From a virus, in the IMG/VR virus record IMGVR_UViG_3300005939_000003, positions 1 through 39,984 of that record: a DNA stretch of 39,984 nucleotides, one strand, 5' to 3'. Shown piece by piece: positions 1-39,984 of this stretch (the first letter of the stretch is position 1; every line of letters begins with the position of its first letter). The translations under genes and the position numbers were made by a program. The notes below the pieces were generated by a model. That model was not told where the DNA came from and made no database searches. It was given only the letters and a program-made list of their open reading frames with translations.

Positions 1-39
1 CTTGTTAGTAGATTTTGAACAAGAAACCTAGAGAAATAA
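1..39 (+). CDS. C-terminal end of the membrane-anchored coiled-coil protein (rest at 39494)
   Basis: The first 12 codons plus TAA are the last codons of the gene starting at 39494, repeated here because the circular sequence overlaps itself. One of the codons is UGA, read as glycine. It is not a separate gene. Confidence 0.9.
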
Positions 40-80
40 CCTTTTATATTAATTATATTAAAAAAAATGAACTCTACATG
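1..80. repeat. Terminal direct repeat marking the circular junction (copy 1)
   Basis: These 80 bases are identical to the last 80 bases of the window (39905-39984). The frame of the final gene continues exactly through the junction and stops at 37-39. This is the signature of a circular (or circularly permuted, headful-packaged) genome opened at an arbitrary point by assembly. Because the repeat lies inside a gene and is short, I do not read it as a packaged terminal repeat, though sequence alone cannot exclude that. Confidence 0.9.
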
Positions 81-1205: not shown

Positions 1206-1277
1206 TGCAGGGAGAGTGCTGGTTCTCGATCTCGTCTCATAAGCGAGGTTACGGTCGTTCGATTCGACACTCTGCAA
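1206..1277 (+). tRNA. tRNA with CAU anticodon (Met, or Ile if lysidinylated)
   Basis: A complete 72-nt cloverleaf. Acceptor TGCAGGG (1206-1212) pairs with CTCTGCA (1270-1276) with one G-T pair. D-stem GAG/CTC encloses a loop containing GG. Anticodon stem CTCGT/GCGAG (1231-1247) encloses loop CTCATAA with U33 and anticodon CAU at 1238-1240. The variable loop is GTTAC. The T-arm GGTCG-TTCGATT-CGACA has four good pairs plus a G-A mismatch at its base. Discriminator A1277, with no encoded CCA. The anticodon stem lacks the GGG/CCC pairs of initiator tRNA, so elongator Met or Ile2 is more likely. The D-stem is short and its spacing slightly irregular. Confidence 0.85.
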
Positions 1278-1528: not shown

Positions 1529-2206
1529 ATGGTAAAAAAGACTTGAACAATGAAAGATCTAGCAAAACGTGCCAAAAAAACGTGAACAAGTACAGCAAAA
1601 ACCACAAAGATTAAGAAACAAATAGTTAAGAAGAAACAATCTAGAGACGAAAGAATCTTAGAAATTGAAATAAATAATAAGAAATGAATTAAAGTAAATA
1701 CCAACATATGAAAATGATCGCCTTCAAAATATAAACCTAAATATGTAAAAGAGATGCTTGAATATTTTGAGAATCATGTAAAATGATGATACTATGAAGA
1801 ATATATTACAGAAGAATTTGTATGAAAAAATTGAGTGATGAGGGAGAGAATCAACACTAGACCAAAAGCTCCACCACGATTTGAGTGATTTGCAATGAAA
1901 ATATGAGTTGATGTTAGAACACTTAGGAACTGGGCTACTGACAGAAATGAAGGTAAATTATTATATCCGTCTTTTTTTCTATCGTACAAGAGATGTTTGA
2001 GTATCCAACTAAGAATGCTTAAAGATCTAGGTATAACCTGACAATACAATTCAAGCATAGCTAAATTATTACTAAGTGCAGAGCATAGTATATTTGATCT
2101 AAGAGAAGATCAACAATCAACATCAGATTGAAAGAAGAAACAAGAACTTAATGAGAAAGACCTAATGGAGGAATTAGGAGAATTTTTTGCAAATTGAAAG
2201 AAATAA
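1529..2206 (+). CDS. terS: Putative terminase small subunit
   Basis: 225 residues. The gene abuts the large terminase directly (TAA then ATG with no gap), the usual position for the small subunit that recognises phage DNA and loads it onto the packaging motor. The N-terminus (1-60) is very basic (KKT.. LAKRAKKTG.. KQIVKKKQ). The middle (70-150) carries repeated aromatic and glycine positions. A segment around 140-185 (R-N-W-A-T-D ... L-S-I-Q-L-R-M-L-K-D-L-G-I-T) resembles the helix-rich DNA-binding part of small terminases. The C-terminus is acidic and helical (D-L-M-E-E-L-G-E-F). The assignment rests more on position and size than on a distinctive motif. Confidence 0.6.
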
Positions 2207-3874
2207 ATGACACAAGATTACACTTTAAATAATGTTATGGATGTACCTGAGAACTTTTTGATAGAAGAAATGTTAGATTTTTCTTGATTATCTAGAGAAG
2301 AAACATTGGAGAAGTGGAGATCAAACGTAAAATATTCAACAGAACAAAGAGACGAATATATAAAACAAGTACAGCACAACAATCTGAAAAAAAGAATATC
2401 TATAATGAGACGTGCTGAATGAGATAAAAAATTCCAAGAGTTTTATTTAGAACAATGTAAAAAGAGTCCATTAATGTTCTTTGCATTATTCTTATGGACA
2501 TATAATCCTAGACTAGATAAACCGCATCTACCGTTCATACCATATCCATTTCAAAACGATTTTATATTATCAATAGTTAATAGTATTGAGAAATGAGAAG
2601 AAGTATTTGTAGAGAAAACTAGAGACGTATGATTCTCATGGCAGATGATCTGAATATATACACGATGATGGTTATTTCACTGATGGAGTACATTATCATG
2701 ATCATATAAAGAGGATTATGTAGATGAGCAATGAAATATGGATAGTAACTTTGAAAGATATAGATACGTATTGTCTAGGCTTCCTGAGTGGATGCTACCT
2801 GACGATATGGCATCAAAATATATGAGTATATCATCAAAAGAAGATTGAGACAAAGAGATAGCAGGAGATTCATGACCTAACTTTTGAACATGATGACGTA
2901 GAAAAAGTGTATGGTTAGATGAGTTTGCATTATGGACTAGAGACTCTACTGCATTTAGAAAGACAAAGGATGTTACAGATTGCAGAATATTCTGATGAAC
3001 TCCTGAATGAACCAACAACGTATATTGAAAAGTAATGACCAACCATAAAGATTATAAACATTATTTATGTAAAAAGATCAGATTACATTGGCGTGATCAT
3101 CCACTAAAAACACAAGCATGGTATGATATGCAGAAAGCTACTAGAACAACATTAGATCTAGCAAAAGAGATAGATATAAGTTATGAAACATCAGTATCAT
3201 GAGCAGTTTATCCACTATTTACAAGGATGGCATCAAAAGGAACATTTGTATATGACATAAAGAGAAAAACATATTGATCATGGGATTTTGGTAGAGATTC
3301 AAATGCTTTTATATTATGGCAAAAGGATTATAAAACATGAATGTTATTTGTGATAAAAACATTTGAAAGAGTATGATGGCATATAAAAGACTTTGCATGA
3401 TTAGTAATATGAAAACCATATCAATGAAATAATCGAGCATATACTACTGAGGACTATGAGTTGATGGAGTATATGAGAATGATCAGATTTAGTGATCATT
3501 TCTGAGATCCATACAATTCTGATACTAAGACCACAGTACAAACTGAGACAATTAGAGAAGCATTGAGAGAAATGTGAATAAATTTAACAACAAATAGAAA
3601 ATCTACATTGAGAGAAAGAATCAATAAAACTCAATTAATGTTGAATAGAGTATTTTATGATAGCGAATGTCATGATCGAGAACAGGCAATAATTCAATCG
3701 CATTATCCACAAATAAAAGAATGATCTGAAAGTACATCAGAGAAGGATAAACCAGTACATGATGAGAACTCTCACTACAGAACAGCTACAGAATATTTTG
3801 CAGATAATGAACCAAATCATTTAGAAGATCCAAGCGATTGATGAGTTGTCGTTAATTCAACTTTATTAAATTAG
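2207..3874 (+). CDS. terL: Terminase large subunit (packaging ATPase and nuclease)
   Basis: 555 residues, the ATP-driven motor that packages DNA and cuts the concatemer. Walker A is KTRDVGFS (137-144), with UGA encoding Gly142. Walker B is SVWLDEFA with D238 and E239. The coupling motif reads C-R-I-F-G-G-T-P-E-G, both central glycines being UGA. The nuclease domain begins at YGSWDFGRD (D360), and the late HYRTATEYFAD region supplies the terminal acidic residue. Family and length are typical. These invariant glycines are the clearest proof in the window that UGA means glycine. Start ATG abuts the small-subunit stop. It ends in TAG, followed by a promoter-like repeat. Confidence 0.93.
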
Positions 3875-3935: not shown

Positions 3936-5828
3936 ATGGAATTCAAAGGAAAAGATTTAAAAAAGATTAAAGAGCTAACTATATCGGAGTTCACAACCAG
4001 TAAAAATGCTTCATCACAAAAGAGACAAACCATGAGAGACAGGACATGGCTCTATAATGTTTCTAACGTTGCGGACGAAAAAGTTAAAGTAAATCTTATC
4101 AGAAGTCTAACAAATTCATTATTAGCATTATATTATCAAGACAAATTGAGTATTAAATGGACAAGTAGAGACTTGTATCATTTTATTGAAGCTAGTAATT
4201 TTCAATCAGTATGTGAGTATGATTATGATAATCTTTCTATGGAAAAAGCAGATTATACTAATCAAAAAAATAGGTTCACAAAATGAGTATGAATCAGATT
4301 ATTAGACGGATGGGATGATCGTCAAGACTATAAGAATCCTAGCTACAAAGTAGTAGCACCTGAATCATGGTATCCTGATCCAAGTGGACATACATCAGCT
4401 GAGAACTTCCAATACATGGGATTTGAAAGAATTATGTCAGTGCAAGAAGTTAAAGCAAACTCAGATATTTGGATGAATACATGAAAAGTAGAAGCATGAC
4501 TTTCTCCTGATATGCAGGAAAAGATTGAATCAGATGCAAGTCCTAGAGATATGACAGCATTAGAAAAAGAATTATGATGATCAAATACAGTAATTTATGT
4601 ACATTATTCAAGATATAAAGGACTTCCAATACAAGTAACCATGCGAGGAGCATCAGAACTATTGGATGTTAGAGTTGTAGAACCATTGATTAGAAAGGTA
4701 AAAGGAAAAACAGAAGTCCTAAAATGGATTCCTGTATCTTTGAATTACTACGAACCTGTAGATTGAGATCCACGAGGAATTTGTCTATACGATATAGCAG
4801 AAGATAAACAGAAATTAAAGACATTGATGTATAATCTTATCAGAGTACAAGCCATCAAACAAGCATTATGAGGTAAAGTATTCTTAGATAAATCAATATA
4901 CTTCAAATCTAAAAAGATATTAGAGCAATGAGTACAATGACCACAATATATACCTGTTGATATTAAAAATAACGCAAATATAGGAAATATGATGTATAAT
5001 GAGCCAGTACAAGGAATGACTCAGGATGTATATAACTTCCCACAATTATTAGATCAACAAGTTCAAGATGATACAGGATTGAGTAGTTTGACTAGATGAG
5101 TAGCAGATCCAAATGCAGACACAGCACGTGAAGCTCAGATAGCACAGATGAATGCCAACATTAATTTGATACTCTGAAACAAAATAAACTCACGATGAGA
5201 AAAAGACTTTTGGGAGCTATGGTATCTTTATTATAAATTCTACTTCTCTGCTAAAGATGAGAAATATACAGAGCTTAATAGAGGTATATGACAATCATGA
5301 GACATATTCTCACGTAAGAATATCATAGGAGCAAACGATCCAAGACTACAAATCCAAAACAAATGAGAATTAGAGTCTAAGAATAAATCAGAATTAGCTA
5401 CTTTTGAGAGAATATATACATTGACTTTAAACGATCCTACTACTCCACCAGTTGCAAGAAGGTTTATGAAACGTAAACTTTATGCTATGCAATGAATGAG
5501 TTTAAGAGAGATCGAGCAATGATGTCCGTATACTCCAGAAGAATTGGATGCGAAAGATCATGTTATATTATTGAATAACAATATGCCTGTGATAATAGAA
5601 GATCCTAATGAAGATCATTACACATATCTTTGTATTTATCAATCAGCATTATCTACACCTGCAACAAAGTCAGCAATAGAAATGAGAAAGATGGCATATA
5701 TACAGAGCTGACAACAAGAATTGATGAATCAAGCATGACCAAATCAAGCAATGCAGAACCATGCTTCAAGACAATCACTATCTCAACAACCACAAAATTG
5801 ACCACAACCACTTTTAAATAATTACTAA
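3936..5828 (+). CDS. Portal protein
   Basis: 630 residues. It should form the dodecameric ring at one vertex of the procapsid through which terminase pumps DNA. It follows terminase and precedes scaffold and capsid, the standard order. Features seen: an N-terminal helical region, a wing-like region with D-W-Y/W-Y-P-D-P positions (about residues 135-160, APESWYPDPSG), a long helical segment with D-K-Q-K-L-K-T-L-M-Y-N-L (about 287-300), a D-D-T-G-L-S-S-L-T-R-G segment (about 380-390) of the type that precedes the stem and crown helices in podovirus portals, and a glutamine/asparagine-rich C-terminal tail that could form a barrel. The size fits P22-like and N4-like portals. Function is inferred from order, length and these segments. 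Confidence 0.8.
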
Positions 5829-5836
5829 AACTACAC

Positions 5837-6918: not shown

Positions 6919-6944
6919 TATTTATTATTTAAAACTACACACAC

Positions 6945-8811: not shown

Positions 8812-9756
8812 ATGGGAATGACAACTAAAGGAAACGTCAATACCTCATGACAATTGTTACAAATTCGATTAAACCGCACTGTATTAGAAAACTTCGAGCC
8901 AAATTTGAGATTTTACTCTATGGGTAAAAAATCAGCATGGAAAAAAGGGTACAACACTTTGTCTCGAACAAAGGTAGATAGAAAAATATCTACACCTGCA
9001 TCTGTATTATTGACAGAAGGAGTTACTCCAACTGCTACTAATATAACTACTACTACTATATCTGTAACTGCAAACCAATACGGAGAATTTGCAACTATCA
9101 CAGATATTCTAGAGGATTCTTCTCCAATCCAAATGATTAAGGAATCTGCAAAGGTTTTAGGAAAAGATATGGCTAGAGTAATGGATTCAGTTATCCAAGC
9201 TAATCTTGAAACAAACTGAACAAACGTTATCTATGCAGGATCAGCAACTTCTAGAGCAACTTTGGGAGCTACTGACCTGATGACTCCAACCCTTCTAGCA
9301 AAAGCAAACGCATTTTTGTCTACAAAATCAGCTCCTACAATGGGAGATGCTTACGTAGCAGTTATGCATCCTAATGTTATTTACGATCTTCAAACAGGAG
9401 CATCAGCATGAGCTTTCTTAGATCTTAAAAAATACACTGATGCTAATGCGAAAGACATCATGAACTGAGAAATTGGTATGTTGTACAACGTAAGAGTAGT
9501 AAAATCTGCATGGGTTCAATCTTTCACATCAACAGTTACTGTTTATCCAACTTATGTAATGTGAGAAGGAGCATACGGAGTTGCTGATTTGCAAGCTTTG
9601 AGAACATACATCACTCCTAGATCTGCATCTGATTCAGATCCTTTGGCACAAAGACAAAAGGTGGGTTGTAAAGTAGCATTTAATTCTATTATATTGCAAC
9701 AAGACGCAATGACTAGAGTTGAGTCAGCTTCTACATTAGCATATACATTTAGTTAA
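8812..9756 (+). CDS. Major capsid protein, N4-gp56 family
   Basis: 314 residues, the likely shell protein. The pattern V-L-L-T-E-G-V-T-P, then T-A-N-Q-Y-G-E-F-A-T-I-T-D-I-L-E (about 80-100), then A-Y-V-A-V-M-H-P-N-V-I-Y-D-L (about 180-195) and a C-terminal G-V-A-D-L-Q-A-L-R-T-Y-I-T-P segment matches the N4-gp56 family of HK97-fold capsids. Codon use differs from its neighbours: of 20 glycines 11 are GGA, 3 GGT, 1 GGG and only 5 UGA, while the tail-hub gene at 11056 uses UGA for 33 of 45. A good hairpin terminator follows, fitting a strongly expressed gene. Confidence 0.9.
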
Positions 9757-10333: not shown

Positions 10334-11056
10334 ATGGCTAGAACAATAAACGATTATATTACAGAACGATTATTTGATAATGCAAAGAATGCAACAGATC
10401 TTACTCCTGCGAAAGCATTAATTCGATTCAATAGATATTTACATAGAGCTGAAAATCAAATAGCTCATTTTGTTATGGAATGATTTTTTGATGAATGATT
10501 AACAATTAGTCTTGTTGCTGGTCAAACAGAATACGATCTTCCATTATGAGATTCAGGATCTCCAGCAGTACCTACAATACCTGAATTAAAGGCATTGTTA
10601 GAATGTACAGTTAAATATTCAACTACATCATGAGAAGGAAGTTGAGTAAAAGCTACAGAGATGCCAGCAGGAAATCTACCTAATCCAGTTGCACGATATA
10701 CAGACAATCAATCAGTAGATGCTCCATATTTTAGATTTGATAATAAAAAACTAAGAATATATCCAGCACCTACAATAAATGTTACAAATTGATTAGTATT
10801 AAGATATGCTAGAACAAATGTAGATGTTGCATTGACTACAGTAGAATCAGCTCTATCAATACCTCGAGATTATATATGGGTAATTTTAGAAGGAATGTCG
10901 TACCAATTAAAGAAAACAAATAAAAGTGTTGATGCTAAGTTTTATAAAGAGGAATGGAATGAAGCATTATTAGAAATGCTAACTGCTATATGAGATAGAT
11001 ACATGCAACCATGACAATATAGAAATCCTGTTTTAACTAATCTTATGCGATTATAA
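10334..11056 (+). CDS. Putative head-tail adaptor protein
   Basis: 240 residues. The N-terminus is a helical repeat-like segment (D-Y-I-T-E-R-L-F-D-N-A-K-N ... A-L-I-R-F-N-R-Y-L-H-R-A-E-N-Q-I). Next come a beta-rich part with the turn S-L-V-A-G-Q-T-E-Y-D-L-P (about 60-72), the pattern F-R-F-D-N-K-K-L-R-I-Y-P-A-P (about 135-150), an L-R-Y-A-R segment, and C-terminal helices. This order, including the late LRIYPAP then LRYAR strands, is typical of podovirus adaptor proteins that sit between portal and tail. It follows the capsid genes and its stop overlaps the next start by one base (TAATG). Confidence 0.7.
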
Positions 11057-14958: not shown

Positions 14959-17900
14959 ATGTGATTATTTGATTTCTTCAATAAAGCTAAAGATAAAGTA
15001 ATAGATATTTTTGATTGAGAAAATGATGTACCTACACAGACATCACAAGTACAGCAATGATGAGTGAATGCTATGTTATGATCTAATCCTACACAACCAA
15101 AACAATCATTAGTTTGAACTGAATGAAAATGATATGTTAGAGGTACTAAGGATAGAGGTGGACTTGCTTCAATAACAGAAGCACCTAGCTTTTTTGAAAA
15201 AACCAAAAACTCTTTCACAAATAAACGATGGAATCCAGTACAAGATATGGCTAGACCACAAGAAGAAGTTAGAGCAGAAAAACAAGAAGAATTTAAAGAG
15301 TATTGAAATCTAGCATGATCAGCAGAACAAAAAGCACAAATATTAAAAGGTTCAGTAGCTCGTATGTGATTTGATACTGCAAAATGACTTGCATGACCAA
15401 ATATAAGATCTGCATGAAATCTAATTACAGATCCAGCATGATTTATAGATAAATATTTACCCGATTCATTAAAATGATGAATTATATGAAAATATATATG
15501 ATCTAGTATTAATCCTGTATGATCAATATTAAATGCTTCATTAAGTTCTAGTATGCAAAAAACTGTAGAATCACTTATAAATAAATGATCAAATACAGTG
15601 GTTGATGCAATAAAAGAACAAGAAACAAAGTTTTTTGATAATAGACCACGATTGGATGATCTTCAATCTAAAACAGATCAGAAATCTATGCTAAAAGCAT
15701 TATATGAATGAGATATAAACACAGTCTGAAATAAGCTTGTATCAGTTATATGACAAAATATTTGACCAGTCCTTGTAACTCTTTTAACAAAGAGTCCTAC
15801 AGCATGAGGAATGGCATTTCTTCCATTAGAATCAAATTCAATGTTAGAAGATCTAAATACTGATCCAGCAACAAAAGATCTAGATCCATGAACAAAAGAT
15901 ATATTAGCAAATATGTATTGATTAATATCATCTTTCATAGAATGAAAAGGTATGGAAATAGCTCTATCTCCATTAACTATAAAGAAAGCTATAACATGAA
16001 AATCATGACCTGCATTATTAAGTGCAGTAAAACAATTAGCTGAAACAATGTGATTTGAATGAGCAGAAGAAGTAGCACAATCAAATCTACAAGATGCGAT
16101 TGCTATAATTATGTGATCAGATAGAGATTGGAGTACATTAAAAGAAAATTGGGATCTATTTGTTGAAGCATGATTAACAAGTTTCTGAATATGATTACCA
16201 TGATCTATACAAGCATGAGTAAATCAATCTCAAATAAACAAACAAAATAAAAGAGATGAAGCAATTAAAAAGATAGATGGAAAAAGAGTAGAGGAACAAA
16301 AATACCAAATAAAAGAATGAGAAGCAAATGAAAAAACATTCAATTATAAAGAAGAATTAGAGAAGACTCATCAAGAAAAAAGACAAAAAAGAACAGATCT
16401 ATATGATGAATATAAAGTAAAAGACGAGGAGATTTCTGTTGTATATGATGATCTGAAAGCTCTAAATATTGATAAGAAATGATATTGACCTTGAATATCT
16501 ACTTTAACTGATGTATTAGAAGAATGAAAATTCAATGAGGTTATTGCAAGAAATTTAACAGACTTTGATTTCTTTGATAGATTACCAAAAAGATCAAAAG
16601 ATATAATAAATAGACAGATAGAAGTTTTTGATAAATATAATAATGTTAATAAAGAATATGATAAAATATACCAAGATCTAGAAACTAAAAGACGAGATAA
16701 TTCAAAAAAAGAACTAACAACAAAATTTATAGAAGATCTAAAGACATCAAGTAAAAAGGATATTGTATCAAGACAGATGTTAGAGTGAATGCTTAACAGA
16801 TGATATAAATGACCTGAAATTAGGATAGCAAAAGAAATATTGGATTCTATGGAATGAGAAAAGGTTAGTAAAATAGAATTTATAAAGAAATTTAAAGATA
16901 AATTATTGCCATTAAACGTAAAGGAATCTAGAAAATTTGCAGACTATAATTATTTAATAGATGGAAACAGCAAAGAATATAAAGAATCAGGTAGATATGT
17001 AGAAGCAAAAGCTCAGACAACATGGCTATTAGAATCTCCATATGAAACAAAAGCTCAGACAACATGGCTATTAGAATCTCCATATGAAACAAAAGCATCA
17101 TGATCTCACTTTGGAAATGATACGGAGTCATATTTTTGACATGTAAGGATAGAAGAAATAGAGGAGGATAATATGATAAGATTAATTGAGTTGCAGTCAG
17201 ATCTAATGCAATGAAGAAGATATGAATGAGATAGTAAACTCCATGATTCAAAATTTTATGTTAAGGAAACGACAAAGCAATTAAAAAGATTAGATATTGA
17301 AATAGATACATTACAAAAGCTTAGAGACAATAAAGAAATAGCAGAGGAGATTATAGATGAGAAACATCAGTTATTCAATAGATCTTTAGAGGAAAGAGAG
17401 GTATCAGAAAATATAATGATAGAATCTGCAAAGGAACTAAGAGTTGAGACATATATATTAAGATCATTAGCATCAGATCTTTTAGAACATCAAAAAGGAA
17501 GTGTTCATGTTGAGAAGACGATTGACCAACTAATTGATTTTGTTGAAGCTAATATAGAAGCAAAGATTATATATTTCAAGAAAGAAATTAAAAACGAGCA
17601 GGATAATATAGACAATGCATCAGAAGAAGAAATAACTAAATTGCAACAATTTGAAGATTATAAAAGTAAACGACATGAAAGATTAGTAAAAGAATTTATA
17701 AGAGAATCTAAAAGCAAAGGAGCAGAATCAGTACAAATACCAGTTTGAAAGACAGTAGCAAAAATTCAATGATACTTAGAAACAGGATGACAAATGCCTG
17801 AATGATTAGAGGTATGAGATGAGCATGAATGAGATTTATGAAATGTAATTGTTACAACAGTTTATTGAGATTGATCTTGATATGGAGTAATTTCTGACTC

Positions 17901-20900
17901 AGAGTTTGCATTTGAGACAACTGTTGAAGAATTTATAAAGGAAGAAGTTGATAATTTGTTTGAGAATCTTGACGATTATGATGCTACAGAGTTTTTGAAA
18001 GCTCAATATCCTGATACAGATCTATGAGATTTAACTGAATCAGAATATGTAACTGAAAATCTACAAAATGAATTTGAGGAGTGGGTAGAAGAAGATAGAT
18101 ATACGAAAGATGATCATGATAGAAAAATGAGAGTATTAGATACACTTGAAAATATGTGATATTGAATGGTTGTAGCAAATAATGATTGAAATATTACAGT
18201 ATTCAAAGAATGAGCATATGAGGAATTTCAATCATCATGAGATACTGAATGATCAGATCGAGATGAGCAATATGAAAACCTATCTGATGAACAAAAAACA
18301 GTAGTAGATTTCTATGATAGAAAATTAATACCATATATACAAAAAACAAGAAAAGATGCAGAAATAGTAGAGTCAGACTGAGCTGAATGGATACAATTTG
18401 ATCTAAAAGAAGAAGATAAATGACCAGTAGTAGCATTTAAAAAATCAACTACAGACAAGAAAAAAGAATTAAAAGACGATGAGAAATATTTTGAAGCGGT
18501 AGACAAAGCTTATGTCTTTAAGAGTCCATTAGCAAAGGAAATATCACAAACAGAAGGGCGAAAACTAATAGAAAAACAAGCAAAAAATGCTTGATTTGTT
18601 GCTGAATTCACTGACAAGATATTTACTGATGATTGACAGGAAGCTCTAGGATCATTTTTCAAAAATACAATTACATTAGCAAAAGATATTACTGACACTA
18701 CAGCACAACATGAGTTATTTCATGGATTATTTAGATTAACAGATACAAAAACAAGAAAAGAGTTATTGGCAGAAGCAATGATATATTTAGATACAGATAA
18801 TCAACTTATTGCTGAGGAGCGACTTGCTGAATCTTTTTGAGTATATGCTAGAAGATGACAAATAAAAGCTTTTGAATTAAAAAGATCAACATGAGTAGAT
18901 TGATTTATTGAGAAAGTTATGGATTTCTTTCAACAAGTTTTTGAGTTCTTTCAAGCAATGAAAATTGATAGAGCATCAATCAACCAATTATTTGATGATA
19001 TGATCGAAGGAAAATTCAAAGATGTAAAATGATTCAGTAGCTCAAAGATACCTAGCTCTGCTAAAACATATTATAAACTTCAAACAGATCCATACACAAG
19101 ATCATACAATAATTATGTTGAGAGAGTACAAAAAATGGAAGCTAGGGAGCAGTTGATATGAACTGTTGCATGAAAGAAAGTTGATAAAGCACACTCTGAT
19201 AAACAAAGCAAATCATGGAGAAAAGACCAAGAAAGTCTTATAGAATCTATATGACAAGAATTTGAATTAGATGCAAACGAAGCAGTAGATATGTATGATA
19301 AAATGGTTGATGATAGACAAATGAAATCAGATTCAAGAAAATCTTTCGATAAACAATTTGAAGAATATACAAAAAGATCAGAAGCAAATGCAGATCCATT
19401 GACTCAGGATCTTAATCCTATGGATGTAAAAGAGATAAATACAATATTAAATAACGATATATTAGAGACAGCAGAATTTTTTGAATCTCTACCAAAAAAA
19501 GAGAAAGAAGAATTTGACACAGTATTTTGAGTAAATCTTTGAGATCTTAAATGAGCAAATCTAACAGAACAGCAAAAGAAATGAGTATCTATATTTGGTT
19601 GAGCAATGCTAAAATCTAGAGCTAGATGAAATGAAATATCAGAAGTAGAGAATATATTGAGATGAAAAGATCTATTAAAAAAATCACAGATACTTAAAGA
19701 TTGATATGGTAAATCAGAAGATTTCATCAACAAAGAATTATTGATTCCTAATAAAGAGATAAACGAAACATATTATGATGATAATGCAGTAAATGAGGAC
19801 GAAGCTACTATGATCTTATGACATGGTAGATTTAAGGTTATGAAAGAAGTTCTACAATATATGAGATGAACTTTTAGACCATGAGGAACAATTATAGAAA
19901 ATAGATCTCCAAAATTACGACAAGACTTCAAAGATCAAGTAGATTTTGAGGAAGAAGATAAAGTTATGAAATTATATGAAACTATAGATATTAGAGAAGA
20001 TAAAATAGAACCTACAAAGAAATTAAAAAGATGAACTAGAAAAGCTCTAGCAAAGACTGAGAATATTCTAGAATTCTTATGAGTATTAGAAGATAGAGAA
20101 AAGGCAGATTTCTTAAAATTATGGTTATCAGCAAGATGACAAGATTTCAAGACATCTAAAGAGATATTAAAATCATATGGATTAGCACCAGCAGGGTTTG
20201 ATAAAGCTCTAAAATTCTTTGATGAAGCATATATGGATCTTATCGAAGCTGGAATAGAAGTTTGATATAAAGAAAATTATTGGGCATCTATGATCAAAGA
20301 TAGGCAATGATTATTAGAACACTTTAAAACAGATAAAGAATTACGAGGACACATAGAAAATGCAGTAGAAAGAGTAGAGAGGATCAGGGGGAAAATGTCT
20401 GATGCGGAGAAAGAAGATCTAAGGATAGCACTTATATCATGAGCAAGACCTGAATGATCAGATCTAAAATTATCGTTCACTCAAAAGAGGGTTTTGGAGA
20501 CTCTAACAAAGGAGACAGCAAAATTCTACTTCAACATGAGAGAAAGTATGTCTAAATATATGAATCAATATGTTTCTAAGGTAACAATGGTAAAATTCCT
20601 TGAATCAAATTGGGATACAAAAGATGAACTAAATTCATTGGTAGTTAAAAAAGTTAAGTCTTATGTAAAAGATGGATTGGTAGATAAATGACAAGAAGAA
20701 ATTGTTATTAAATATATGGTATCTCGTATAGGTTCAGATGTTACTACAGAACTGGTACAAAAATTAAAAGCACTTACATATACAGTAAAGATATGTAATT
20801 TTGCTAGTACAATGACACAATTATGAGACGTATGATTGGGAGCATCAGAATATTGAGTAAAGCCAGCCACAAAGAATTTCACAAGAGCTATGCTTTGAAA

Positions 20901-21906
20901 ATCTATATTCAAAAAATCAGATGTTGTACACTCTATATCATCAGATGTTCCAATGTGAAAATCTAGCACAGAGCAGTTATTGACTAGGTTATTGACTATA
21001 ACATGATTTACAAAAATGGATAGATATGGTAAAGAAGTTATATTAAATAGTGCATTTGATGAAGCAGTAAAATTAACAAAAAAATGAGATAAGAAGTTTA
21101 TGAACTTTCTAAACAAATATTATTCAGAAGAACATGTAGAAAAACTTGTAGATGATTTCAAAAATAAGAGAAAGAATAAAAATACTAGACAATATGTATA
21201 TGCTCAATTATGTAAGATCCAGCCACAAAGTCAGACAGAGATGACAAAAGCATATTGGGATCATCCATGAGGAATGAGATATTTATACACTCTGAAAACT
21301 TTTGCAATTAAGCAGACTGATTATGTATTAAATATGATCAAGAAGAATTATGAAACATATTCAGCACCTGTAGCAACATTAAAATCTATAAGATCAATAT
21401 TATATATTATATTGTTTGGTATGCTGAAAGATGAATTAAAAAATATATTCTTATTCAGAAAAAATAGTTCATGGTTATATAGAATGATCACATGAAAGAA
21501 ATCAACATGAGCAATTCAGGAGCAGTTTATGGATAATCTATTACAATTATTTATGTTCTCAAAATATAGTATATATCAAGCAAAAACTGAATGAGTGGGA
21601 GCTATGATAAAAGATCTATTGATTGGAATACCAGCATTAGATATATTAACATATCCAGCATATGATCTACAAAAGGTATATGATTGGTTAGTAAAAGATT
21701 GAGATCCAGTAACATATAAAGATTTGAAATCATTTCAATTAATACCAATAGTATGAAAAAATATATATTGGAACTTTGGAAGATGACAGGCATCTCAACA
21801 AAAAGCATACTGAAAAATAAAGAAAGAATCTGAGTATTGATTAGATTTAGATCTTGACTTAGACCTTGACCTTGACTTAGACCTTGACTTAGATTTAGAT
21901 CTTTAA
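14959..21906 (+). CDS. Giant polyvalent virion protein with zincin protease motif
   Basis: A single 2,315-residue frame, 17% of the genome. Residues 1-450 hold small-residue, partly hydrophobic helices with a basic coiled coil after them. Residues 717-748 (S-H-F-G ... G-H-V-R-I ... L-I-E-L-Q-S-D) match the large-polyvalent-protein domain pattern S-H-x ... H-x-R ... E-I-Q-S-D; the companion G-A-E-S-V-Q-I-P-V-G-K-T segment is at 921-932. An HELFH zinc-protease motif lies at 1251-1255, with E1286/E1287/E1291 in E-E-R-L-A-E-S-F as candidate third ligand. Residues 2087-2120 carry the late Q-P-Q-S-Q-T-E-M ... L-K-T-F pattern of the same protein class. Such proteins are packaged and injected with phage DNA. 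It begins ATG-UGA and ends in a (Leu-Asp)10 tail. Confidence 0.85.
17006..17096 (+). repeat. Exact 42-bp tandem duplication inside the giant gene
   Basis: Copies at 17006-17047 and 17048-17089 are identical, and seven bases of a third copy follow (17090-17096). Each unit encodes 14 residues (Q-T-T-W-L-L-E-S-P-Y-E-T-K-A), so the frame is kept. It lies just before the EIQSD-like domain. Identity at the base level indicates a very recent duplication or active slippage. Confidence 0.95.
21841..21903 (+). repeat. Leu-Asp dipeptide repeat at the C-terminus of the giant protein
   Basis: Residues 2295-2315 are ten Leu-Asp pairs plus a final Leu. The codons vary (TTA/CTT for Leu, GAT/GAC for Asp), so the hexamers TTAGAT, CTTGAC and TTAGAC alternate rather than repeat exactly. 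The protein pattern therefore seems maintained while the DNA has drifted, which argues for selection on the peptide. Confidence 0.9.
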
Positions 21907-26598: not shown

Positions 26599-27753
26599 AT
26601 GGTAATTAGACCACAACAAGAAAATGAATCAGAACAACAGATTCAAAATTATCAAGTAACGATTGCACAACAATGAAATCTTACTTGGAAAGATTCTGTT
26701 ACAGATGTTTGATCTCTACCATCAACATGAAATGTTGTAGGAGACAGTAGAACAGTATTAGCAGATTGATTTGTAAGAAAACGGGATTGAGCAGATTGGG
26801 TATTAATAGCAGGAGCATCAGCAGAAGCATTGCTTCCACGAGATGCATCAGGTTGAGCTTTTCCAACAGTAACAGCAGGAGAATCTGCGAATTATATAAT
26901 TTCTGTTGCAGGTACATTGCCAGCACCAGTATGAGCGGTAGAAATTTGAGATTGGATACTTTGGGATGGATATGTTTGGACACATATTCCAAATACTGCT
27001 GATCAATATGTAAATACAACTGTTGATAATGTTGCGGTTTGAGGATTGCCAGCATGAAGCTGACCATTTGACGAGCCAGTAACATCTCTATTAGATAGGT
27101 TCTTATATCCATTTATAGAGCTATCAGCAAGTTTATGAACATCGCCTACCTATAATACATATTATGAAAATTGAGTAGATCTAGCACCTTCTACACTTTC
27201 TGCAATTTTTGTGAATTCTCAAAATCCTATACATCCTGTAGAGGAAGTATTATTTAAAAGATGAGGAGTTTTGATAGACACAAAAACATGAGCAAATCTA
27301 ACAAGTCCACAAACATTTATAGAAGCTCCAGCAATTAGTGAAACAACAACATTTAGTTGTGAAGTTAAAGATGATCAGCCAGTAACAAAAATATGATCTA
27401 GAACTTACAATTTTGTATATCCAATGTATGGTTGAAATTCAGTAGCAGACGATTACTTGAATCGAACAGATCTTGCAAGTATCGAAGCAGTCTTAGCTAC
27501 GAAAAAAACTAGACCTGAGGAAGATACGGCAATTACAGATACTTTCACAAACGCAAGAAACATATTTGTATATCCTGCATCATATGGAGATTTAACATCT
27601 ATTATAGATTGAAACTGATTTGAAACTATTTCAAACTATGATAAATTTACAAAATCTTATACAACAAGGGATTGAAATGCCACATCATATAACATATACC
27701 AAATAAAATCAGACACAAGTCAGACAGCCTTTATCAATAACTATAATTTCTAA
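26599..27753 (+). CDS. Tail or fibre protein with carbohydrate-module-like segment
   Basis: 384 residues, beta-rich. Residues 90-135 contain V-G-A-V-E-I-G-D-W-I-L-W-D-G-Y-V-W-T-H-I-P, a G-D-W-I-x-W-x-G ... W pattern seen at the head of phage adhesin modules. The C-terminal third (G-D-L-T-S-I-I-D-G-N-G-F-E-T-I-S, then Y-T-T-R-D-G-N-A-T-S-Y-N-I-Y-Q-I) resembles conserved C-termini of tail proteins. Its stop overlaps the next start by one base. Likely part of the host-contact apparatus. Confidence 0.7.
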
Positions 27754-28076
27754 TGGTAGATTTTGCATGAATACAACTCGGATCTCCAATGGTGGAGAAT
27801 AGTGCATTGCCATTAGATCGTAAGACTTATTGGGATGACAGCACACAAAGAAACGAACTTACAATTACTCAAAGACGGGTATGAATGGTTTGATTTAAAG
27901 TAGATGACCAAAAATATTACAAACTAATTACTAATCAATTAGCAGGAGTCGATTTATTAGATTCAGATTGGATAGAAACAGAAATTGCAACAGTAGTTCA
28001 ACTTGTAGATACAGTTACTGCTACAAAATATAATCTACAAATAGAAAACTGAAATCTAGGTATAACAGCCGTATAG
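27753..28076 (+). CDS. Hypothetical tail-associated protein
   Basis: 107 residues. It is coupled (TAATG) to the upstream tail gene. It has several aromatic and charged beta strands (T-I-T-Q-R-R-V-G-M-V-G-F-K-V-D-D-Q-K-Y-Y-K-L). The pair resembles modules that recur at fibre junctions, with W-D-D-S-T-x-R-N-E-L before a short sandwich. Function not recognised. Confidence 0.7.
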
Positions 28077-33249: not shown

Positions 33250-34053
33250 ATGTTAGAAAACCTAGAACTGTATTTAGATGCAGTAGATCAAGCAGATTCA
33301 AGAGATTATTCATATGAGGATCTATATATGAAAGAATATTGAATGTGAAAATCACAAAAGCCTATTCGAGATAGAAAGGTAATGAAGATACGAGATCAAT
33401 TTGATCAAACAAGTACATATAAAGCATGTACAGAATATTCATTATGTAGTGCATATAATGCAAACAACGTAGCAGAATATCTAGAAAAAGATCTAGAATT
33501 CAAACAGCTAAATCCAATGTATAGATGGCACGTTTATCAAAATACTAGATGACGACCAAATACAGGATCTACACTCCAAAAGATGATGAAATTCTTTATT
33601 AAAAACAATTGGATTGAAGGATATATGAGAGCGGATACTATGGAATGATGTAAGAATGCTATAGATAACTGATTCATAATATATACCTGATCATCTAAAT
33701 TTGATTGGAGAAAATCATGAGCTTCATGAGTAGCAGAGCTATGAAATTGAGGATGACATGCATTTATAATTGATTGATATAATAACAGATGATTTACATG
33801 TCCTAATTCTTTCTGAGAAGATCGATGAGATGGATGATATTTCACTGTACCATATGAATACTTTGATAAAATGTTCTCTAAAAATGTTATAATAGATAAA
33901 GATGATACATGAATAATTAGTAGATTAAGTTTTGATAGAGAGTTCCAAAAAGCTATCGAAGCTGGAATCACTAATTGAGAAAGACCAAATGAGCCTGCTA
34001 CTAGAAAAGAGACAGCAGTGATGATTTATAGATCTCTTGCAATTAAAGATTAG
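33250..34053 (+). CDS. Papain-like cysteine peptidase with SLH-like C-terminus (likely lysin)
   Basis: 267 residues. The catalytic set can be read as Q53 (oxyanion), C60 in Y-K-A-C-T-E-Y-S-L, H170 in G-G-G-H-A-F-I-I-D-G-Y and N186 in C-P-N-S-F-G-E-D, followed by D-G-G-Y-F-T-V-P: the order and spacing of the C1 papain family. Residues 228-263 (F-D-R-E-F-Q-K-A-I-E-A-G-I-T-N-G ... P-A-T-R-K-E-T-A-V-M-I-Y-R-S-L) match one S-layer-homology repeat. It directly follows the holin and precedes the late terminator, so it is probably the lysis enzyme, cutting protein rather than peptidoglycan. Starts after the AAAACCACACGAA-type leader. A structural, tail-bound protease is the alternative. Confidence 0.8.
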
Positions 34054-34333: not shown

Positions 34334-34367
34334 GGAGTTGAAATAGATTTAATTCATTATAAATTGT

Positions 34368-34706
34368 ATGAACAAAGAACTGTGTATAGCTATAGTACAA
34401 AACATTATAGCAGAAGTAAAATTAGCATATCCATTTATGAAAATAAACCGCACAAAAGTTATGGAATATGTAGGATATGATAAAACATATCTATATGCAT
34501 ACCAAGAAGAAAGACTATCTGTGCATGTATACTCCAAATTAGTAACTGTACTAAAGGAGGTAGATATAGATGAGATGGTTATTGAATGGATGGCAGAAAG
34601 TAAATTAGACTGCTCTTTGGGGGAGAATAAAATACCTGTATCCACAGAGGATACTTTAGAATCTAAATTAGATGATGTTACATGACCCGAAAAATCTGAA
34701 CACTAA
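34368..34706 (+). CDS. Putative small early regulator
   Basis: 112 residues, first gene after the control region. It is predicted all-helical, with N-R-T-K-V-M-E-Y-V-G-Y-D-K-T-Y-L-Y-A-Y-Q-E-E-R-L-S-V-H-V-Y (about 26-54) arranged like a helix-turn-helix, followed by a helix V-T-V-L-K-E-V-D-I-D-E-M. The acidic tail ends with one UGA glycine. Position behind a palindromic promoter suits an autoregulator. The start follows ATTATAAATTGT, close to the leaders at 35448 and 37240. The HTH reading is by eye and uncertain. Confidence 0.55.
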
Positions 34707-35202
34707 GATTATTTTAGGATTAGTATTTATTTTGATCATATTAGTGATCGCTCGATGGAATTTAGTGTATTGAGAATCACAGATGATAGTAACTACTACA
34801 ACGAATGTACAAACAGTTATTTTAGAAAAACCAGTCCAAAGAGAACTGGTAAAAGAGAAGAAATTATACAAAACATGGCGACCAAAAGATGATCCAAGAC
34901 AAGAATATATCAATGAAACGTATAAATTATGATGAATGAACAAAGTTGTATTAAATGAATGTGAATGGTATGATCGAGATCCAAATAAAGTATGAGATGG
35001 ATGACATGCATATTGACTATGTCAGATGAATGATAGATTCCATGATATACCTGATCAATACTATACAGACCGAAGATTCCAAATTAAGTATTGCTTTGAA
35101 AAAAGAAATTGAGGATCTCTATTTTATTGACCTGATCGTGCTGACTGAGAGAATTGAGAGAAATGTATGAGTTATGCACCTAGAAGATTTTATTTAGAAT
35201 AA
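34675..35202 (+). CDS. Membrane-anchored lytic transglycosylase-like protein
   Basis: 175 residues. One membrane anchor near the N-terminus (about 11-30, I-I-L-G-L-V-F-I-L-I-I-L-V-I-A-R-W). Then a lysozyme-like domain: N-E-T-Y-K-L-G-G-M ... V-L-N-E-C-E-W with candidate catalytic E95, H-A-Y-G-L-C-Q-M-N (111-119), and Q-I-K-Y-C-F-E-K-R ... L-F-Y-G-P-D-R. This order fits the SLT lysozyme/transglycosylase fold, which cleaves peptidoglycan glycan strands. C96 and C116 could form a disulfide, suiting the cell exterior. It overlaps the regulator gene by 32 bases. A second ATG three bases upstream is in frame. Early placement, away from the holin, argues against it being the sole lysin. Confidence 0.7.
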
Positions 35203-35427: not shown

Positions 35428-35447
35428 CCTTTTAAATTATAAATCGT

Positions 35448-35852
35448 ATGACAATGATTAAAAAAACACTAACAAGAAGAAGCTTTATGAAAAAATCAAT
35501 GGACAAGGAAAAGGGTAAAGACAGAAGGGTAAGACTATCAAAAGATGACAAAGTAGAGATCAGAAAACTTTACAAAACCTGATCGTATACTTATAAACAT
35601 CTAGCATTTAGATATGGTGTAGTAATTTCTACTATATTTTGTGTTATACATCCTGATATTTATCAAAAGCATCTTAAAGCTAGGAGAGAATGGTGGAAAA
35701 CAAATAAAGATCGTTATAGTAGATCTTATATGAATAGTGCTGGTAGGGCTACAAGACTTTGGAAAGCAAACCTATATAAAAGATATATTTTAAACATACA
35801 AAATATAAAACTTAATATTTGGAAAAAATTAACAATACGATTAAATATATAA
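35448..35852 (+). CDS. Putative DNA-binding protein with HTH-like region
   Basis: 134 residues, very basic. Residues 29-60 (V-R-L-S-K-D-D-K-V-E-I-R-K-L-Y-K-T-G-S-Y-T-Y-K-H-L-A-F-R-Y-G-V) have the look of a resolvase or transposase type helix-turn-helix, with L-Y-x-x-G-x-x-x-x-x-L-A-x-x-Y-G-V as the core. A lysine, arginine and tryptophan-rich tail follows. It could be a transcription regulator or homing-type protein remnant. Starts after ATTATAAATCGT, shared with 37240. Only one glycine is UGA. Confidence 0.6.
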
Positions 35853-35880
35853 CATTTTATATTAAATAACTACACACATT

Positions 35881-36177: not shown

Positions 36178-36195
36178 ATAAAAACTACACACAAA

Positions 36196-36330: not shown

Positions 36331-36357
36331 GTATTTTATTATGTCTAAAAACTACAC

Positions 36358-37203: not shown

Positions 37204-37233
37204 TTATATTATGTTATATTATATTATATTATA
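37204..37233 (+). repeat. TTATA pentanucleotide repeat upstream of replication gene
   Basis: Six tandem five-base units, TTATA with one TTATG, end seven bases before the ATG at 37240. Immediately upstream is a hairpin AGCC/GGCT around CTGTATACAG. Five-base units would shift spacing, not a frame, if they slip. The run is extremely melt-prone, fitting an unwinding element or promoter spacer. Confidence 0.85.
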
Positions 37234-37239
37234 AATCGT

Positions 37240-37731
37240 ATGGCAACAAAAAGACAAATTGAAACAAGACTGCGAAAAGATACATATATCAAAAGTTTGA
37301 AAGCAACAGAGAAATTATTGTTTGTATATCTTTTGACGAATTCATTTACAAATATAGCAGGAGTATATGAAATAGGGATAGATGAAATGATAATAGATAC
37401 AAAGTTATTAGAGTGGCAGATCATATCCATATTGAAAAAGTTTGAAGAAGATTGAAAAATAGTATATAAGAAGAACTGGGTTTACATTAAGAATTTTATC
37501 AAATATCAATCTAAGAATCCTTCTATTATACAAGGTATTGTAAAAGAAATTGATATGATTCCTAAATGGTTTCTGAAAGAGATAGATATACAAATACCTG
37601 TAAGCAAAGATACAAAATATATTAAAGCAAAAAAGAAGATCACAAAGAAATACGAAGTAGATACAAGTCCAAAACCTATTATAGATAAAGACAAAGCTAG
37701 AGAAGCATTAAATAGAGGTAGATGAAAATAG
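37240..37731 (+). CDS. Putative replication organizer (winged-helix initiator-like)
   Basis: 163 residues. The N-terminal half, with R-L-R-K-D-T-Y-I-K-S-L-K-A-T-E-K-L-L-F-V-Y-L-L-T-N-S (about 10-35), I-A-G-V-Y-E-I-G-I-D-E-M (about 38-50), F-E-E-D-G-K-I-V-Y and N-W-V-Y-I-K-N-F-I-K-Y-Q (about 68-90), is the winged-helix module of phage replication organizers, which bind the origin and recruit helicase loaders. The tail is lysine-rich. No ATPase or helicase domain. The AT-rich TTATA run just upstream could be the origin. Starts after ATTATAAATCGT. Confidence 0.68.
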
Positions 37732-37755
37732 TTTTATTATATTAAATAACTACAC

Positions 37756-38682: not shown

Positions 38683-39492
38683 ATGACATGATTAACTGAT
38701 TTATTTAAGCCATTTGAGGTAAAACGAATGGTACAAACAACTTACAAAAACGATACAAAATGTATCTGTGTAGCATACTTTGATGCTAGAGATACTATGG
38801 ATCAATTAAACAATCTTATTGGTATAAACAACTGGCAAGACAAAATTACTACAGTTGCAGGAAAAACTGTATGTAGTATCTGAATTAGAGTAGATGGAGA
38901 ACGATTACGAAGATCTGATATGGGAGACACAAAGGAATGAAAAGAGAAGACTACATCATCATGAGCATTTAAAAGAGCAGGAGTAAAGCGAGGTATTGGT
39001 AAATTTACTTATGATATACCTAACCAATATCTAGATTACAAGAAAGTTTGAAATTACGGACATGCAGTATTTGGTTGAGAATCTTTGAAGAATCCTATTG
39101 ATCTATCAAATCATTGTAATGATAACTTCATGCAAGGTAAGGTTGATTTGCCTGAGAAGATCTATGATGTAGTACCAGTAACTACTGAGTTATTGCAATC
39201 AGCTAAAGACAAATTAGATCAAATTGCCAAAGGAAATATTGACAAATTAGAGGTATTTGCTATTTCAAAAGATCAGAAAGGTATCATCAATGAACTTATG
39301 GGTATTATACCTGAGTTTGCTATGACAAAACCTACATGTTATTGAGAAGCAGAGGATTATATAGCAAAGTTCAAAAAGCAGTTCAGAGGTAGTATAATCT
39401 CTGGAGAACATAAACCTGATGCTGATTATATTAAAAAAGTATTTGGGGATGTAGAATCAAAAAAGATTTTATCTGAGTTAAAGAAAAAATAA
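38683..39492 (+). CDS. Rad52-family single-strand annealing protein
   Basis: 269 residues. The N-terminal 130 residues match the Rad52/22 annealing core: C-V-A-Y-F-D-A-R-D-T-M-D-Q-L-N-N-L-I-G-I-N-N-W-Q-D (29-53), a beta region V-C-S-I-G-I-R-V-D-G-E, R-S-D-M-G-D-T-K-E-G-K-E-K, then S-S-G-A-F-K-R-A-G-V-K-R-G-I-G-K-F-T-Y-D (92-111). The C-terminal half is helical and unassigned. It should anneal complementary single strands in phage recombination or replication. No partner exonuclease is visible. GGN outnumbers UGA for glycine, 16 to 7. The start follows ATTTAAAAATCACACGT, not a Shine-Dalgarno. Confidence 0.88.
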
Positions 39493-39493
39493 G

Positions 39494-39943
39494 ATGATAA
39501 CAGTAATTATAATATTATTTGTACTTATAGCAGTATTATTCTGTGCGGTATTATGACTGATTGATAGACTAGAAAAATGAGAAGCAGATAATATAAAAAT
39601 TAGAAAAAATGCATCTGATTATGTATTAGATACAAATAATTCATTTAGAAAAGTTCAGGGAGATATGGAGCATTTCAAAAGTGAATTAGAGAGTCATGAA
39701 GAAGAAATAGAAGATCTTGCAGATGATACAGATAAATTCTTTTATTTCTATGCTATAAAATATTTGCTAGAAGAAACAAGACTAAAAATCGACTCAAACA
39801 GTACATTATATATTGTTATTGAAGGTAAGGAGATAGACGAAATAGAGATGACGATCGAGGTAGAATGAAAAAATATAGAATTATCAAAAGATTGATTAAC
39901 ATACCTTGTTAGTAGATTTTGAACAAGAAACCTAGAGAAATAA
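39494..39943 (+). CDS. Membrane-anchored coiled-coil protein crossing the circular junction
   Basis: 149 residues. One N-terminal membrane segment (I-T-V-I-I-I-L-F-V-L-I-A-V-L-F-C-A-V-L-G-L-I), then a helical stretch (F-R-K-V-Q-G-D-M-E-H-F-K-S-E-L-E-S-H-E-E-E-I-E-D-L-A) likely coiled coil, then a mixed C-terminal region. It starts one base after the Rad52 stop, and its end duplicates bases 1-39. Possibly co-expressed with the Rad52-like and Acb2-like genes on one transcript. Function unknown. Confidence 0.78.
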
Positions 39944-39984
39944 CCTTTTATATTAATTATATTAAAAAAAATGAACTCTACATG
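39905..39984. repeat. Terminal direct repeat marking the circular junction (copy 2)
   Basis: Identical to bases 1-80, including the first 14 bases of the Acb2-like gene. Joining the copies gives a 39,904-bp circle with uninterrupted reading frames. Confidence 0.9.

What the first reader, a model, noticed from the sequence alone, without database searches (positions are those of the whole stretch)
2207..3874. UGA is read as glycine throughout (code 25), seen at invariant terminase glycines
In the large terminase UGA occupies the glycine of the Walker A loop (KTRDVGFS, 137-144) and both central positions of F-G-G-T-P. The papain G-G-G-H-A-F and SLT H-A-Y-G-L-C-Q motifs also need glycine at UGA. 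Tryptophan (code 4) would put W at these sites while real TGG codons occur elsewhere. Stops are only TAA and TAG. This points to an Absconditabacteria or Gracilibacteria host.
Basis: partly seen in the sequence, partly recalled or inferred. Interest (0 to 1): 0.75.

Follow-up and report, generated by a model that had tools for sequence, protein, structure and literature searches.

The report
Phage reads UGA glycine, CGA tryptophan

Summary
UGA occurs 584-589 times in frame in about 40 ORFs that end only in TAA or TAG. Against about 235 standard-code homologous loci, glycine is the best reading of UGA by far (log-odds +14.8, W -68). The terminase Walker glycine is Gly in 85 of 85 homologues. 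One detail is wrong: the two UGAs of F-G-G-T-P are not conserved glycines outside the recoded phages (mostly Val/Ile and Ser).

The interpretation 'code 25' is incomplete. The 61 in-frame CGA codons sit at conserved tryptophans (Erf/Rad52 columns W 67/73, 79/83, 82/83; portal 6/6), never preferentially at arginine. The Erf profile scores 97 bits with CGA=W, 77 with R. The four CGG codons point the same way on thin evidence. UGA=Gly plus CGA/CGG=Trp is the code published for Absconditabacteria. Chromosomal loci from one code-25 order (49 genomes) show the same CGA meaning; a complete genome there has tRNAs UCA (Gly-like) and UCG and CCG (Trp-like), and no genome scored for RF2. The phage carries none of these tRNAs and presumably uses the host's. 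Relatives form a clade with the same code; one more distant phage keeps CGA=Arg, a natural control. No CRISPR spacer matched. Code-25 phages of this host are published; I found no report of CGA/CGG=Trp in a phage.

The parts
1..80 (.). direct terminal repeat, copy 1 (identical to 39905-39984): the window is a complete, circularly closed map of 39,904 bp
39905..39984 (.). direct terminal repeat, copy 2
1206..1277 (+). tRNA with anticodon CAU, the only tRNA of the phage; no tRNA for UGA, CGA or CGG
1529..2206 (+). small terminase-like (GP3_package, below cut-off), 14 UGA, 1 CGA
2207..3874 (+). large terminase, 30 UGA, 3 CGA; UGA at Walker glycine 142; CGA153 at a Trp/His column
3936..5828 (+). 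SU10-type portal, 21 UGA, 3 CGA; CGA280 is Trp in 6 of 6 standard-code homologues
8812..9756 (+). major capsid protein, 5 UGA (136, 219, 251 at conserved Gly), 2 CGA at aromatic columns
10334..11056 (+). SU10-type adaptor, 8 UGA, 5 CGA
26599..28076 (+). two adjacent ORFs (26599-27753, 27753-28076) holding two of the four CGG codons, in contexts RK-CGG-DGADWV and QR-CGG-VGMVGF
33250..34053 (+). papain-like cysteine peptidase; UGA at motif glycines, CGA192 in NSFGED-W-GDGGYF
37240..37731 (+). DnaD-like replication protein; 2 UGA, 1 CGA (Trp in the single homologue aligned)
38683..39492 (+). Erf/Rad52-like annealing protein; CGA at 15, 74, 103 are Trp in 67/73, 79/83, 82/83 homologues: the strongest evidence for CGA=Trp

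Best explanation
The window is the complete genome of a tailed phage that uses the full genetic code of Absconditabacteria: UGA=Gly, CGA=Trp and probably CGG=Trp, with UAA and UAG as the only stops. Shown here: the meaning of UGA and CGA from aligned homologues; that a code-25 bacterial order uses the same CGA meaning, has (in its one complete genome examined) tRNAs with anticodons UCA, UCG and CCG, and lacks a recognised RF2; and that the phage encodes none of these tRNAs and no release factor was found among its annotated genes. Inferred: the phage infects a member of that order, and on infection host Gly-tRNA(UCA) and Trp-tRNA(UCG/CCG) read these codons in all phage genes, with no suppressor tRNA or code switch of its own.
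For: UGA: column tally against standard-code homologues gives G +14.8 and W -68; capsid profile 171.6 bits with UGA=G, 166 with A, 154.7 with W; GGN is the commonest non-identical partner in recoded relatives. CGA: Erf columns W 67/73, 79/83, 82/83, portal 6/6, terminase 53/85; score W +19.7, R -9.8; Erf profile W 97.1, R 77.0, next best F 83.5 bits; window CGA aligns with TGG 55, F/Y 37, CGA/CGG 13, AGA 3 times in recoded relatives; the commonest homologue residue is R at 0 of 7 well-covered CGA columns but 19 of 25 AGA/AGG/CGT columns, p 0.0005. CGG: W in L006 (3 columns) and L106 (TGG 7 of 9). Host: LeuRS motifs KW, NWCP, QWVLRIT, RYWG use CGA; CGA aligns with TGG about 62 times and with Arg codons once in loci of the order; tRNA(UCA) has a Gly-type acceptor stem, tRNA(UCG) and tRNA(CCG) have G73 like tRNA-Trp; RF2 over cut-off in 0 of 49; published for Absconditabacteria (PMC8629427).
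Against: Only four CGG codons, one aligned (to TGG), so CGG=Trp in the window itself rests on relatives and on the paper. At some CGA columns (portal 237, 420; capsid 19, 52) the homologues have N, A or F rather than W. The adaptor profile hardly separates W (51.5) from R (51.0 bits), and a weak, sub-cut-off Pfam hit of the papain-like protein was lost with CGA=W. No CRISPR spacer match. The G handles carry no taxon names, so naming the order Absconditabacteria rests on its code and on the paper. No proteomic data.
Confidence: 0.93

Rival explanations
1. Plain code 25: UGA=Gly but CGA/CGG still Arg; for instance a Gracilibacteria phage.
For: This is the code used for all such phages in the literature read here (PMC10746230; PMC13059738), and a relative, L278, does behave so.
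Against: Three Erf tryptophans and one portal tryptophan fall on CGA; 20-bit loss with CGA=R; no tendency to Arg in any comparison of the window. The code-25 loci L180-L182, L186, L187 use CGA 0-1 times in 8 kb.
Confidence: 0.04
2. Code 4 type: UGA=Trp (Mycoplasma-like or suppressor-tRNA phage).
For: UGA=Trp is the commonest UGA recoding in bacteria (general knowledge; also listed in PMC8629427).
Against: W is strongly disfavoured at UGA columns (-68); capsid loses 17 bits, Erf 11 bits; tryptophan is already written TGG and CGA.
Confidence: 0.005
3. A standard-code host with phage-encoded code switching: UGA read through late in infection by a phage suppressor tRNA.
For: Known for other recoded phages (described in PMC10746230).
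Against: The phage has no UCA tRNA; UGA lies in every gene class including replication and recombination genes, so no early gene set is free of it; it would not explain CGA=Trp.
Confidence: 0.01

Closest known systems
Absconditabacteria (SR1) genetic code: UGA=Gly, CGA and CGG=Trp (Shulgina & Eddy 2021, PMC8629427)
   Same: the same reassignments; CGA commoner than CGG; low GC; host tRNAs UCA, UCG, CCG
   Different: described for the bacteria; in the passages read, the only phages with a recoded sense codon are two AGG=Met phages from baboon metagenomes
Code-25 phages predicted for Absconditabacteria and Gracilibacteria by CRISPR spacers (Liu et al. 2023, PMC10746230)
   Same: dense in-frame UGA, almost no annotation under code 11
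   Different: analysed under table 25 only; CGA and CGG do not occur in the text
RSA-ATP1, 39,071-bp phage of Strigamonas methylophilicida, Absconditicoccaceae (mBio 2026, PMC13059738)
   Same: size, circular map, UGA=Gly, a tRNA-CAU gene
   Different: RSA-ATP1 carries its own tRNA-Gly(UCA), which the window lacks; lambda-like Bet/Exo instead of an Erf-like protein; treated as code 25
IMG/VR relatives L006 and L096 (dual code), L097-L101, L103, L104-L106 (UGA=Gly, few or aromatic CGA/CGG)
   Same: L006, L096, L097-L101 and L103 form a capsid clade with the window (99/95 support for nine rows); UGA=Gly
   Different: capsid identity 43-66%; CGA usage falls from dozens to almost none

Membership tests
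NCBI genetic code 25 (SR1 and Gracilibacteria) | UGA=Gly | tested here: met
NCBI genetic code 25 (SR1 and Gracilibacteria) | all other codons as in table 11, so CGA and CGG = Arg | tested here: not met
   CGA=Trp:
Absconditabacteria code of Shulgina & Eddy 2021 | CGA=Trp | tested here: met
Absconditabacteria code of Shulgina & Eddy 2021 | CGG=Trp | tested here: inconclusive
   four CGG in the window, one aligned (to TGG); relatives L006, L106 support it
Phage of an Absconditabacteria host | CRISPR spacer match | tested here: not met
   201 spacers, best match 15-16 bases; weak test, few arrays
Phage of an Absconditabacteria host | codon meanings match those of the host chromosomes | tested here: met
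Phage of an Absconditabacteria host | prophage or relative inside a host genome | tested here: inconclusive
   L278 lies in a MAG of the order with related portal and capsid, but reads CGA as Arg, so it may be misbinned
Caudoviricetes, SU10-type head module | portal, adaptor, capsid and terminase families | tested here: met
   SU10_portal and SU10_adaptor over Pfam cut-offs, PHROG 1357 capsid; virion morphology not testable

The most novel reading that the evidence does not exclude
A clade of Absconditabacteria phages has followed its hosts through both a stop-codon and a sense-codon reassignment (UGA=Gly, CGA/CGG=Trp), a combination that table 25 does not describe, while a relative in the same capsid family kept CGA=Arg. 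The meaning of CGA then separates phages by host lineage, and every code-25 annotation of these phages carries wrong residues at conserved tryptophans.
Probability: 0.8. Interest if true: 0.62.

Novelty: new variant of a known kind. Interest (0 to 1): 0.55.

Why it matters
It gives evidence from an independent genome that the CGA/CGG=Trp reassignment inferred for Absconditabacteria is real and well established, since a virus depends on it. It shows that a sense-codon change is no lasting barrier to viruses. It offers a host marker finer than UGA alone, and it warns that annotations of these phages under code 25 have arginine where tryptophan stands.

Tried and rejected
CRISPR: 201 spacers (with duplicates) from Cas1 neighbourhoods of the host order against window and relatives; only 15-16 base matches, taken as chance. 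Substitution test with the IMG/VR contigs listed at 94-98% identity: they are identical to the window at all 9,032 compared codons (the apparent mismatches are masked or differently read codons), so they are the same virus and not independent. Adaptor profile as a test of CGA: uninformative. Terminase search of eight code-25 genomes and of the order: no close prophage. Capsid hits in the wider class were mostly in standard-code loci. L278 as host link: rejected as proof because its CGA behaves as Arg. SLT identity of 34672-35202: no support. Pfam for the 2315-aa ORF: nothing.

Full report
What was checked. The ORF 2207-3874 is open for 555 codons only if UGA is read as an amino acid; it holds 30 UGA and no internal TAA or TAG. 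Under the standard code the window has no ORF over 151 aa; under table 25 it is filled by about 40 ORFs on the + strand, ending 33 times in TAA and 7 times in TAG. The first and last 80 bases are identical, so the window is a complete phage genome of 39,904 bp whose map closes on itself. Contigs of the same virus, identical at all compared codons, come from four other IMG/VR records.

UGA is glycine. I masked UGA, CGA and CGG in every window protein, aligned them to about 235 loci that use the standard code (GenBank phages and IMG/VR contigs found) and read the residues at the masked columns. Glycine scores +14.8, serine 0.8, tryptophan -68. The commonest residue is Gly at 15 of 27 well-covered UGA columns, against 17 of 22 for GGA/GGT columns. 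The Walker-like KTRDVGFS glycine is Gly in 85 of 85. Reading UGA as each of eight residues, the capsid profile scores best with Gly (171.6 bits; Ala 166, Trp 154.7). In recoded relatives UGA exchanges with GGA, GGT and GGG; L006 has GGN at most of the terminase UGA sites. The papain motif is supported by a PDB match; the SLT motif is not supported by anything I could run.

CGA is tryptophan. The first hint was that conserved tryptophans of the window terminase are CGA or CGG in the relative L006. The window itself has 61-62 in-frame CGA and 4 CGG next to 95-96 TGG and about 400 other arginine codons. In the standard-code set, CGA columns of the Erf/Rad52-like protein are Trp in 67/73, 79/83 and 82/83 homologues, a portal column in 6/6 and a terminase column in 53/85; the score is W +19.7, Y +4.4, R -9.8. 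The commonest residue is Arg at 0 of 7 well-covered CGA columns but at 19 of 25 AGA, AGG and CGT columns (Fisher p 0.0005). The Erf family profile gives 97.1 bits with W, 83.5 with F as next best, 77.0 with R (ten residues were tried). In recoded relatives window CGA meets TGG 55 times, F/Y 37, CGA/CGG 13, AGA 3. For CGG the window alone is too poor (4 codons, one aligned, to TGG); L006 and L106 say Trp.

A control from nature. The contig L278 (8.5 kb, with related portal and capsid) reads UGA as Gly but its CGA meets Arg codons 43 times and TGG never. So the method returns Arg where Arg is right.

The host. A DNA pattern for GHVDHGKT with both glycines written UGA found eight contigs, titled as Gracilibacteria, Patescibacteria group or uncultured bacterium; all eight are dense in in-frame UGA. 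Two (L184, UBA6263; L185, Tobar13m-G42) use CGA freely, and their LeuRS has CGA at the tryptophans of NWCP, QWVLRIT, RYWG and GSSWY. They belong to one order of 49 held genomes. Loci from genomes of that order, aligned to a complete genome there (G078, 1.13 Mb), have CGA opposite TGG about 62 times and opposite Arg codons once. G078 has tRNA(UCA) with the G1:C72, C2:G71, G3:C70, U73 pattern that Shulgina & Eddy take as glycine identity, and tRNA(UCG) and tRNA(CCG) with G73 as in its tRNA-Trp (identity elements read by eye from the sequences). No genome of the order has a release factor 2 over the curated cut-off, while 10 of 14 control genomes do. The other code-25 genomes sampled use CGA hardly at all.

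How it works. The phage has one tRNA (CAU) and none for UGA, CGA or CGG. UGA makes up 66% of its glycine codons (71% in G078) and lies in structural, replication and recombination genes alike, so there is no sign of a code switch between early and late genes. The simplest mechanism is full dependence on host tRNAs. The UGA share differs among genes (p 3.6e-8): 25% in the capsid, 30% in Erf, 91% in the terminase, which may reflect expression level; that is a guess.

Relatives. The capsid tree puts the window, L006, L096, L097-L101 and L103 together (99/95), with L105/L106 and L269 (the capsid of L278) nearby and one standard-code-like row, L268, among them. L006 and L096 clearly share CGA=Trp; in L097-L101, L103 and L106 the few CGA/CGG codons meet Trp or F/Y more than Arg. 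L104 and L105 have almost none.

Compared with what is known. UGA=Gly phages of Absconditabacteria are published: a CRISPR-based set (PMC10746230) and RSA-ATP1, which brings its own tRNA-Gly(UCA) (PMC13059738). The first never mentions CGA or CGG; in the second the word tryptophan does not occur and the phage is treated as code 25. Shulgina & Eddy report phages with AGG=Met but none with CGA/CGG=Trp in the passages read. Six literature searches of the open library found no phage with CGA/CGG=Trp; subscription papers and preprints were not searchable. I therefore call it a new variant of a known kind.

Limits. No spacer match, no proteomics, no named host. CGG rests on few codons.

Noticed in passing
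1079-1086, 1295-1302, 5829-5836, 6933-6940, 35868-35875, 36183-36190, 36350-36357, 37748-37755: AACTACAC occurs 10 times (1.05 expected by shuffling), mostly on the + strand and often a few bases before an ATG; a possible leader, promoter or ribosome-binding signal in place of a Shine-Dalgarno.
   Followed up: partly
34357-34370, 35437-35450, 37229-37242: TTATAAATYGTATG directly at three gene starts: a -10-like box a few bases before ATG, which would suggest leaderless transcripts.
   Followed up: no
14959-21906: A 2315-aa ORF without Pfam match, with a 42-bp tandem duplication (17002-17085) and a C-terminal (Leu-Asp)n tail from a short repeat at 21844-21903.
   Followed up: partly
whole window: The UGA share of glycine codons varies strongly by gene (12% to 100%), low in capsid and Erf, high in terminase.
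   Followed up: partly
L278 (8451 bp): A phage contig in a MAG whose chromosome reads CGA=Trp itself reads UGA=Gly and CGA=Arg and has higher GC (39% against 31%): misbinned, or a phage with a code differing from its host.
   Followed up: partly
1206-1277: A lone phage tRNA with anticodon CAU, diverged from the three CAU tRNAs of G078; RSA-ATP1 also carries a tRNA-CAU.
   Followed up: partly
L294-L300: Absconditabacteria-type genomes with Cas12a-like repeats (TTTCTACTATTGTAGAT) and up to 41 repeats per array, three arrays in the complete genome G078.
   Followed up: no
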